From Erysipelotrichaceae bacterium OttesenSCG-928-M19 (GTDB lineage: Bacteria > Bacillota_I > Bacilli_A > JAJDGJ01): a stretch of DNA of 47,292 bases. Position 1 is the stretch's first letter; the number at the start of each line of letters is the position of its first letter. The translations under genes were made by a program, and so were the position numbers. Positions 24,763 through 26,616 of the stretch are shown piece by piece. The notes beneath the pieces are model-generated. The model had not been told where the DNA came from and searched no databases. It was given only the letters and a program-made list of their open reading frames with translations. Where the stretch lies: the NCBI GenBank assembly GCA_030265585.1, contig JAJDGJ010000007.1, positions 1 to 47,292 of the forward strand. Reading direction: 5' to 3'.

Positions 24763-24774
24763 AAGGAGGTGATC
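24763..24774 (+). promoter_or_regulatory. Full-length Shine-Dalgarno site deciding the start at 24778
   Basis: AAGGAGGTGATC is complementary to the complete usual 16S anti-SD tail. It contains the in-frame GTG at 24769, which therefore cannot be the start. The ATG at 24778 lies at normal distance. Confidence 0.8.
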
Positions 24775-24777
24775 ATA

Positions 24778-26616
24778 ATGTTAATAAAGAAAACGACCAC
24801 TAGATTATTATTTTTATTAACAATATCACTTATTATGCAAGGAGTCTACCAAATTAATGCTGCAAGCTATGATAATGTTGAAAAAAAATTCAATGAGAGA
24901 AAACAGGTTATTGAAGAAATTTATTTTGAAAGTGATACTAAAAAAATTAGAAAAGAATTTTTTTACAATAACGATGATTCTTTAGCAAGAAGTATTGATT
25001 ATGATTATGAAACCAAACAATATGTTAGTGAATCTTTTTACAGTCCTCAAGCACGCTATGAAAACAAAACAAGAGAAATTACTTATAGAAATACTTATCA
25101 GTATGAAAATGGAAAATATCTGAAGAAAAGTTATCGTTATGATTATAGTTTAGGAAAATATACTCATGAGTTTATTTATGAAAATAAAACAAAATTCAAA
25201 AATAGAGCTGATAGTCTAAGATACCAAATAATTTATGAATATAAAAACGACTTAACTTTGAGTAAAGCCATCAAGTATGATTACAAAACAAAACAATATC
25301 TAAGCGAATACTATTACAAAGTAGATACAGACTTTAAAGAGCGCGAAACAAATTATGATTATCGTTTAGACTTTTACTATAATAGTGATAATACTATTAA
25401 TAATATTCAAGAATATAATTATGATCAAACTAATTATCACAAACAATATTTCTTTAAAGCAGATACAATTTATGGAAATCACTTCCAGTATTTATTATTC
25501 AGTTACCTGTTTGAATATGATAAGAATAATTTCTTAGTAAAAACACTTAAATATGATTATCTAACAAAACACTATCTAAGTGAATTGTACTATGATGATG
25601 ATACTCAATTTAGTGAGCGAAGCACTAAATTAAGTTACTATTTTATCTTTTACTATGATAAAGATGATAACTTAGTAAATTCTTTTAAATATGATTATAA
25701 AATAAAACAGTTTACCTATGAATATATCTATTATCCTAATACTTATTATGGTGATAGTCATGATGATAAAATTAAAAAGAAAAAACAGCTATTATTCTCA
25801 TCGAAATTAGTATTACCATTAAAAAGTGGTATTGTCTCAGCTACAGCTTGGTCATATCAAGATGGTGGGTGGCATCCAGCAGTTGATATTGCTACACCAA
25901 TAAACTCACCGATTTATGCACCAGCTAATGGTGAAATCTTAATGCGTATGACTACTACAACTGGCTATGGCATTCACATGGTCACTATTCATCAAATTGG
26001 TGATGATACTTTTACATTTATTTACGGACATCTAAATAAACAAGGTAATAAAGATAAGTTTCTTCAAGGTGATATTATTGGTTATACTGGAACAACTGGT
26101 AATTCAACTGGACCACATCTTCATCTTGAAATTATAAAGCATCCTAACCAATCACTTAATGAAGTTAAACAAAAATTTGCTAGTAATCAAGATTATTGGT
26201 TTGGTTTAGGCTATCATAGTATTGGTAATTGTAAGATAGATACTGTTTGTCGATTAAATCCAATTGAATACTTTAATTTAAACTATCAACAAGCAATAGC
26301 AATAAATACGGTTCAAACAAATACTATACTATCAAATAACTATCTTGATAACGTTAGAAAAACATATTCACAATTATCATTTGGAACTGATGCCTTATAT
26401 ACTAAAGAAGGTTTGAGTTATTATAAAATAATCGCTGATAAAGTAACTAGGATTCAGGCTAAAACAAAAAGTGAACAAGAACTTAAAAAGAAACTTGAAC
26501 ATCTTCTAACTAAAAAGACTGAATTGCTTAAAAAAATAGTCTATGAACAAAACAAACTAAGTAATAAAGAAAAAGATGAGAAAATCAATAGAGAAATTAT
26601 TGAAATAATCTACTAA
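24778..26616 (+). CDS. Secreted M23 metallopeptidase with tyrosine-rich 46-residue repeats
   Basis: A 612-residue exported protein. Signal peptide at residues 1-28 (cleavage near INA-A). Residues 72-330 hold five complete 46-residue repeats and part of a sixth, each starting with a YDY-x-TK-x-Y-x-SE-x-YY-like block. A shorter related segment precedes them. The LytM/M23 peptidase domain is about 340-480, with His366 and Asp370 (HPAVD) and His447/His449 (HLHLE) as the usual zinc and catalytic residues. The approximately 110-residue tail is Lys-rich and helical. It probably cuts peptide cross-links of peptidoglycan, while the repeats may bind the wall or fold as a beta-structure (inference). Single-gene transcription unit with its own promoter and terminator. 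Confidence 0.88.
   Translation: MLIKKTTTRLLFLLTISLIMQGVYQINAASYDNVEKKFNERKQVIEEIYFESDTKKIRKEFFYNNDDSLARSIDYDYETKQYVSESFYSPQARYENKTREITYRNTYQYENGKYLKKSYRYDYSLGKYTHEFIYENKTKFKNRADSLRYQIIYEYKNDLTLSKAIKYDYKTKQYLSEYYYKVDTDFKERETNYDYRLDFYYNSDNTINNIQEYNYDQTNYHKQYFFKADTIYGNHFQYLLFSYLFEYDKNNFLVKTLKYDYLTKHYLSELYYDDDTQFSERSTKLSYYFIFYYDKDDNLVNSFKYDYKIKQFTYEYIYYPNTYYGDSHDDKIKKKKQLLFSSKLVLPLKSGIVSATAWSYQDGGWHPAVDIATPINSPIYAPANGEILMRMTTTTGYGIHMVTIHQIGDDTFTFIYGHLNKQGNKDKFLQGDIIGYTGTTGNSTGPHLHLEIIKHPNQSLNEVKQKFASNQDYWFGLGYHSIGNCKIDTVCRLNPIEYFNLNYQQAIAINTVQTNTILSNNYLDNVRKTYSQLSFGTDALYTKEGLSYYKIIADKVTRIQAKTKSEQELKKKLEHLLTKKTELLKKIVYEQNKLSNKEKDEKINREIIEIIY
24991..25767 (+). repeat. 46-residue protein repeat array (about 5.6 units)
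   Basis: Units start at residues 72, 118, 164, 210, 256 and 302 (138-base period). Recurrent features are YDY or YNY near positions 4-6, TK/TN near 8, Y at 11, SE near 13, YY near 16, and a second Y-x-F/Y-x-Y-x-x-D/N-x-L block near 36-44. Exact 46-residue spacing is kept five times without insertions. Nucleotide identity is modest, so the array is old. Confidence 0.85.

What the first reader, a model, noticed from the sequence alone, without database searches (positions are those of the whole stretch)
24778..26616. M23 endopeptidase carrying an exact-period array of tyrosine-rich 46-residue repeats
Residues 72-330 consist of five full and one partial 46-residue unit with strict spacing (starts 72, 118, 164, 210, 256, 302). 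Each has a YDY-TK-Y-SE-YY half and a Y-x-Y-x-x-D/N-x-L half. The pattern recalls YD or MORN-like beta-repeats but I do not recognise the family. Fused N-terminally to a LytM domain with all metal residues, it may be a new wall- or glycan-binding module or a beta-solenoid spacer.
Basis: partly seen in the sequence, partly recalled or inferred. Interest (0 to 1): 0.62.

Follow-up and report, generated by a model that had tools for sequence, protein, structure and literature searches.

The report
New wall-enzyme accessory repeat, tyrosine-rich
A secreted cell-wall-cutting enzyme of an uncultured, small-genome gut-type bacterium carries a repeated tyrosine-rich building block that no family library lists, that is predicted to form a repeating beta-sheet, and that relatives attach to several unrelated wall enzymes, so it is probably a new kind of wall-targeting tail.

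Summary
Confirmed. The ORF at 24778-26616 (612 aa) encodes a secreted M23 peptidase with an array of strict 46-residue period (autocorrelation z about 11 at 46, 92 and 138). The array has five full units (residues 72-301) and a partial last unit that looks like a C-terminal cap. Pfam and NCBIfam list only the M23 domain. The same repeat (44-residue period; BLASTP E=6e-15, in register) occurs in a related MAG, Md513_bin19. There it is fused to four other catalytic domains: glucosaminidase, NlpC/P60, YkuD L,D-transpeptidase and a C39-like peptidase. A glucosaminidase in another family also carries it. On the orthologous glucosaminidase of the three other genomes of the order, a different tail sits in its place. 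The repeat is therefore a swappable accessory module. AlphaFold2 predicts three strands per unit (pLDDT mostly 84-96). Foldseek finds only local likeness to Rhs/teneurin YD shells, OspA and MORN sheets, and there is no sequence membership in them. Best reading: a narrowly distributed, uncatalogued repeat that holds secreted wall enzymes on the envelope (0.6); a rigid spacer is the main rival (0.25). Binding is untested. New variant of a known kind; interest 0.42.

The parts
24764..24774 (+). Shine-Dalgarno-like AGGAGGTGATC before the ATG at 24778
   Evidence: read directly
24778..24864 (+). N-terminal signal peptide-like segment, residues 1-29 (KK..LLFLLTISLIMQGV..NAA)
   Evidence: sequence reading; not run through a signal-peptide predictor
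24883..24990 (+). possible shortened first unit (N-cap), residues 36-71
   Evidence: weak: resembles the first unit of the NlpC-fused array (15/1000 shuffles reach the score); the C39 match is out of register
24991..25128 (+). repeat unit 1, residues 72-117
   Evidence: unit profile match
25129..25266 (+). repeat unit 2, residues 118-163
25267..25404 (+). repeat unit 3, residues 164-209
25405..25542 (+). repeat unit 4, residues 210-255
25543..25680 (+). repeat unit 5, residues 256-301
25681..25770 (+). partial sixth unit / C-terminal cap, residues 302-331 (KYDYKIKQFTYEYIYYPNTYYGDSHDDKI)
   Evidence: resembles the last units of L092 (z=9.3), the glucosaminidase (z=7.4) and C39 (z=4.0); weak in YkuD (z=3.0), absent in NlpC
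25798..26157 (+). M23 (LytM-type) peptidase domain, residues 341-460; H366, D370, H418, H447, H449
   Evidence: PF01551 7.7e-17; alignment to LytM and TagE structures
26158..26292 (+). family-specific extension after M23, residues 461-505 (DYWFGLGY..C....VCRLNP)
   Evidence: shared with the M23 paralogues of all four genomes of the order
26395..26613 (+). Lys/Glu-rich C-terminal tail, residues 540-612, coiled-coil-like
   Evidence: sequence reading only

Best explanation
The array is a stand-alone accessory module on a secreted murein endopeptidase. Each 44-46 residue unit forms three beta strands plus a short helix/turn (NT.YGNH..), and the units stack into one long sheet. One face of the first strand is a conserved aromatic/aliphatic stripe and the other is more polar and variable. 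It most likely holds the enzyme on the cell envelope by many weak, repeated contacts with peptidoglycan or a wall-attached glycan, as SH3b, choline-binding and similar repeats do on other wall enzymes, and it sets how far the catalytic domain reaches. Shown by computation: secretion-type N-terminus, period, M23 residues, homology of the arrays, attachment to five catalytic types, tail exchange on one orthologous enzyme, and murein synthesis genes in the host. Inferred: sheet topology, binding, the ligand, and the physiological role (autolysin for growth or separation).
For: Same repeat on four other catalytic domains in G003: glucosaminidase, NlpC/P60, YkuD and C39_2, and on an SH3/glucosaminidase-like protein in another family (G004, L092; found with a profile that held no G004 row, E=6.5e-8; period 44, z=20.6). 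Homology is not a composition effect: composition-adjusted BLASTP E=6e-15 in register and hhalign 97.2%, E=4e-11, between window units and G003 units. The module sits N-terminal in some proteins and C-terminal in others, with about 4-10 units. The single glucosaminidase orthologue ends in this repeat in G003 but in an RCC1-like plus other Y-rich tail in G000-G002. The host makes peptidoglycan: penicillin-binding transpeptidases in 4/4 genomes and MltG/YceG in the window. Repeating beta fold at pLDDT 84-96 over most of the array. In strand 1 the alternate columns 30, 32, 36 and 38 are conserved aliphatic/aromatic while 31, 33 and 35 vary. Modular catalytic plus wall-binding architecture is standard for M23 enzymes (PMC9662197).
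Against: No ligand or binding data. No residue set looks like a recognised sugar or stem-peptide pocket. Conserved aromatics in a sheet can be purely structural. The C39_2 partner is not necessarily a wall enzyme. Only three genomes carry the module, so co-occurrence statistics are thin. The family's main M23 paralogues do without it.
Confidence: 0.6

Rival explanations
1. The array is a passive rigid spacer (stalk) that projects the catalytic domain through a thick envelope; the sheet needs no ligand.
For: All-beta repeated sheet prediction; structural likeness to the OspA single-layer sheet; variable unit number; units diverged to 20-50% identity with the period kept.
Against: On the glucosaminidase of G003 the array is C-terminal and ends the protein, with nothing beyond it to project. 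A pure spacer would not need a conserved aromatic face or a conserved NT.YGNH loop.
Confidence: 0.25
2. The array is a protein-protein docking surface (division machinery, self-association or adhesion to a host or neighbour surface) rather than a wall binder.
For: Rhs/teneurin and MORN-type sheets, its structural neighbours, often act in protein contacts (own knowledge). Lineage-specific Y-rich surface repeats could serve adhesion in an insect gut.
Against: Found only next to wall enzymes and a secreted peptidase in the genomes searched; no surface-anchor motif seen; no free-standing array protein found.
Confidence: 0.1
3. The whole gene is a phage-derived lysin or a bacteriocin-like weapon whose array recognises a competitor's wall.
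For: No same-place counterpart in three relatives: in G002 the valS-alaS interval holds an unrelated gene, and in G001 and G003 valS has other neighbours. Patchy presence in the family.
Against: No repeat hits in phage, plasmid or IMG/VR collections (one search shows M23-only hits). The M23 domain is closest to the family's own chromosomal paralogues, 42-51%. No phage genes among the neighbours annotated. Same array on an L,D-transpeptidase, which builds rather than cuts.
Confidence: 0.05

Closest known systems
M23 peptidases with wall-targeting domains (lysostaphin SH3b, zoocin A TRD) and LytM
   Same: Secreted M23 catalytic domain with complete zinc and catalytic residues joined to a non-catalytic module (PMC9662197)
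   Different: The module is a 46-residue tyrosine-rich beta array at the N-terminus, not SH3b, LysM, TRD or choline-binding repeats; no Pfam or NCBIfam family detects it
RHS/YD repeats (Rhs shells, teneurins)
   Same: Tyrosine-rich antiparallel beta repeats; best Foldseek neighbours (E 1e-8 to 1e-12)
   Different: TM-score mostly 0.1-0.26 and rmsd about 20 A or more, so only local likeness; no PF05593 hit at E<=10; no shell-forming length and no cleaved cargo
MORN / MORN_2 (YwqK-like) repeats
   Same: Beta-hairpin sheet repeats; neighbours in the viral structure library
   Different: PF07661 unit is 22 positions against 44-46 residues and glycine-poor (1.5%) here; no PF07661 match in the window genome or its family
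Borrelia OspA single-layer sheet
   Same: Long beta-sheet meander predicted; Foldseek E about 1e-5, TM up to 0.32
   Different: OspA is a single lipoprotein, not a periodic tyrosine-rich module on wall enzymes; 6-10% identity

Membership tests
Peptidase M23 (PF01551) | HxxxD and HxH zinc/catalytic motifs in a significant profile match | tested here: met
   61.7 bits, cut-off 28.7; H366, D370, H418, H447, H449 aligned to LytM
Peptidase M23 (PF01551) | endopeptidase activity on peptidoglycan | not testable with these tools
   needs biochemistry
RHS/YD repeat (PF05593) | profile match to the repeat | tested here: not met
   no hit at E<=10 among six arrays
RHS/YD repeat (PF05593) | spiral beta shell enclosing a cargo | tested here: inconclusive
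   local 3Di likeness only, low TM; coordinates not available
MORN / MORN_2 (PF02493, PF07661) | about 22-23-residue repeat with a profile match | tested here: not met
   period 46/44; no profile match
Known wall-binding modules (SH3b, LysM, choline-binding, GW, PG_binding) | profile match in the non-catalytic part | tested here: not met
   window protein: M23 only; relatives: only a weak SH3_3 in the glucosaminidase, outside the array
Wall-targeting accessory module (functional kind) | swappable between unrelated wall enzymes | tested here: met
   five catalytic types; tail exchange on orthologous glucosaminidases
Wall-targeting accessory module (functional kind) | binds the envelope | not testable with these tools
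   no binding data

The most novel reading that the evidence does not exclude
This is the founding example of an undescribed wall-glycan-binding beta-meander repeat, confined so far to small-genome Bacilli that sit between walled Erysipelotrichia and wall-less Mycoplasmatota, and reading a wall polymer peculiar to them.
Probability: 0.3. Interest if true: 0.6.

Novelty: new variant of a known kind. Interest (0 to 1): 0.42.

Why it matters
Wall-enzyme targeting modules are how Gram-positive bacteria aim their own lytic enzymes, and few repeat types are known. A new one with a clear unit, a confident fold prediction, known partners and an exchange event is directly testable. It also bears on how reduced-genome lineages near the wall-less mycoplasmas still manage a wall.

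Tried and rejected
Phage or mobile origin: no repeat hits in the phage, plasmid or IMG/VR collections. Simple low-complexity artefact: rejected by composition-preserving shuffles, composition-adjusted BLASTP and in-register profile comparison. Recent tandem slippage: rejected, units 45-64% identical in DNA. A DUF4854 match (E 0.0004 for one relative in the lenient scan, 28 residues; 15.5 bits against a cut-off of 28 on the whole protein) was treated as chance, as was the Sclerotium lectin hit (E 0.05). Isolated hits in G337, G476 and G526 (E 4e-4 to 1e-3) were not arrays: the G337 hit was looked at and is an unrelated acetyltransferase-like ORF; the G476 and G526 hits cover about 31-35 residues once and were not read further. 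The own-genome Y-rich M23 protein L041 and its G001 counterpart L042 do not match the unit profile and have no 44-46 period: likely analogous, not shown homologous. A combined full-length alignment was misaligned by mixed domains, so it was not folded. RHS toxin sequences were deliberately not fetched as yardsticks.

Full report
OBSERVATION. The ORF is 24778-26616 (+), 612 residues, with AGGAGGTGATC just before the ATG. Self-comparison of residues 30-335 gives peaks only at lags 46, 92 and 138, with z of 9-11 against 500 shuffles of the same residues (z 9-12). The stated unit starts (72, 118, 164, 210, 256, 302) are correct. Units are 20-52% identical in protein and 45-64% in DNA: an old array kept in strict register. 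The M23 domain is complete: H366, D370, H418, H447, H449.

WHERE IT LIES. The window is contig C67 of a 1.12 Mb, 62% complete genome. The order holds four genomes here, of about 1.1, 1.6, 1.2 and 1.3 Mb. PMC12786226 describes an unclassified Clade A next to Erysipelotrichales made of Pq454_bin41 (1.2 Mb), Md513_bin19 (1.3), OttesenSCG-928-M19 (1.1) and PM5-9 (1.6). By size the window would be OttesenSCG-928-M19; this is inference. Another Md513 bin comes from the gut of the termite Mastotermes darwiniensis (PMC12483993). The lineage is walled: penicillin-binding transpeptidases in 4/4 genomes, and YceG/MltG and a polysaccharide deacetylase in the window.

THE REPEAT IS A SEPARATE MODULE. In Md513_bin19 the same repeat, period 44, is fused to glucosaminidase (L037:2473-4566 +, array C-terminal), NlpC/P60 (L038:2809-3819 -), YkuD L,D-transpeptidase (L039:2867-4033 -) and a C39-like peptidase (L040:3109-5142 -, about 10 units). 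Homology with the window array: tblastn E=4.8e-16, composition-adjusted BLASTP E=6e-15 in register, hhalign 97.2%. In another family, G004 carries about seven such units at the end of a protein that reads as SH3/glucosaminidase-like (L092:460-3162 +; with a profile that held no G004 row; its catalytic domain was named by reading, not by a profile scan). Over 395 class genomes and 392 phylum genomes (partly the same ones) nothing else convincing was found. The sampling is partial, and the profile could miss diverged arrays: the phylum search did not list G004, for instance. The same-genus genome G001 (98% complete) and G002 (96%) lack the array.

TAIL EXCHANGE. Each of the four genomes has one glucosaminidase. 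In Md513_bin19 it ends in this repeat; in G000, G001 and G002 the same enzyme ends in an RCC1-like stretch plus a different tyrosine-rich stretch. The window gene has no same-place counterpart: in G002 the valS-alaS interval holds a different gene, and in G001 and G003 valS has other neighbours.

STRUCTURE. AlphaFold2 of residues 27-345 with ten rows: mean pLDDT 79.6, pTM 0.67; about residues 147-336 at 84-96. The 10-unit array of G003: mean pLDDT 80.7, pTM 0.57, later units at 82-96 and the middle poor. Both give three strands per unit with a short helix or turn at the NT.YGNH loop. Alignments were shallow (10 and 6 rows) and share sequences, so the two models are not independent. Foldseek ranks Rhs/teneurin YD shells (E 1e-8 to 1e-12), then OspA (1e-5), and in the viral library MORN proteins, with TM no higher than 0.47 and mostly below 0.3. 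This is local beta-meander likeness, not a shared global fold. Column conservation alternates in strand 1: positions 30, 32, 36 and 38 are conserved I/Y/F/Y and 31, 33 and 35 vary; position 37 is also mostly tyrosine.

KNOWN FAMILIES. Pfam and NCBIfam match only the catalytic domains, apart from a weak SH3_3 in the glucosaminidase. At E<=10 neither RHS nor MORN profiles appear. No PDB sequence matches the unit profile. A role by analogy with SH3b-type wall binding (PMC9662197) is inference.

JUDGEMENT. The fusions and the tail exchange say accessory module on wall enzymes with high confidence (about 0.85). Binding rather than spacing is likely but unshown (0.6 against 0.25).

Noticed in passing
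L119:826-3051, L120:455-2674, L121:306-2594: Glucosaminidases of the own genome, G001 and G002 end in an RCC1-like stretch (IWGKNNLGQLGNG) and a different Y-rich tail, where Md513_bin19 has the window's repeat.
   Followed up: partly
L041:2853-4679 and L042:1862-3949: Second Y-rich N-terminal stretch on an M23 domain, conserved in place between the two congeners; L042 shows an 80-residue period (z=6.5), not 44-46, and no match to the window's unit profile.
   Followed up: partly
window 26158-26292; L003, L004, L005, L043-L048: M23 proteins of this order share an extension after the M23 domain (YWFGLGY....C..VCRL.P...F.L) with two conserved cysteines in most copies, not covered by the Pfam M23 match.
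   Followed up: partly
L005:1331-2353: An M23 protein sits directly downstream of an ATPase-like gene that looks like a conjugation protein (VirB4-like by reading), possibly a mobile-element wall hydrolase.
   Followed up: no
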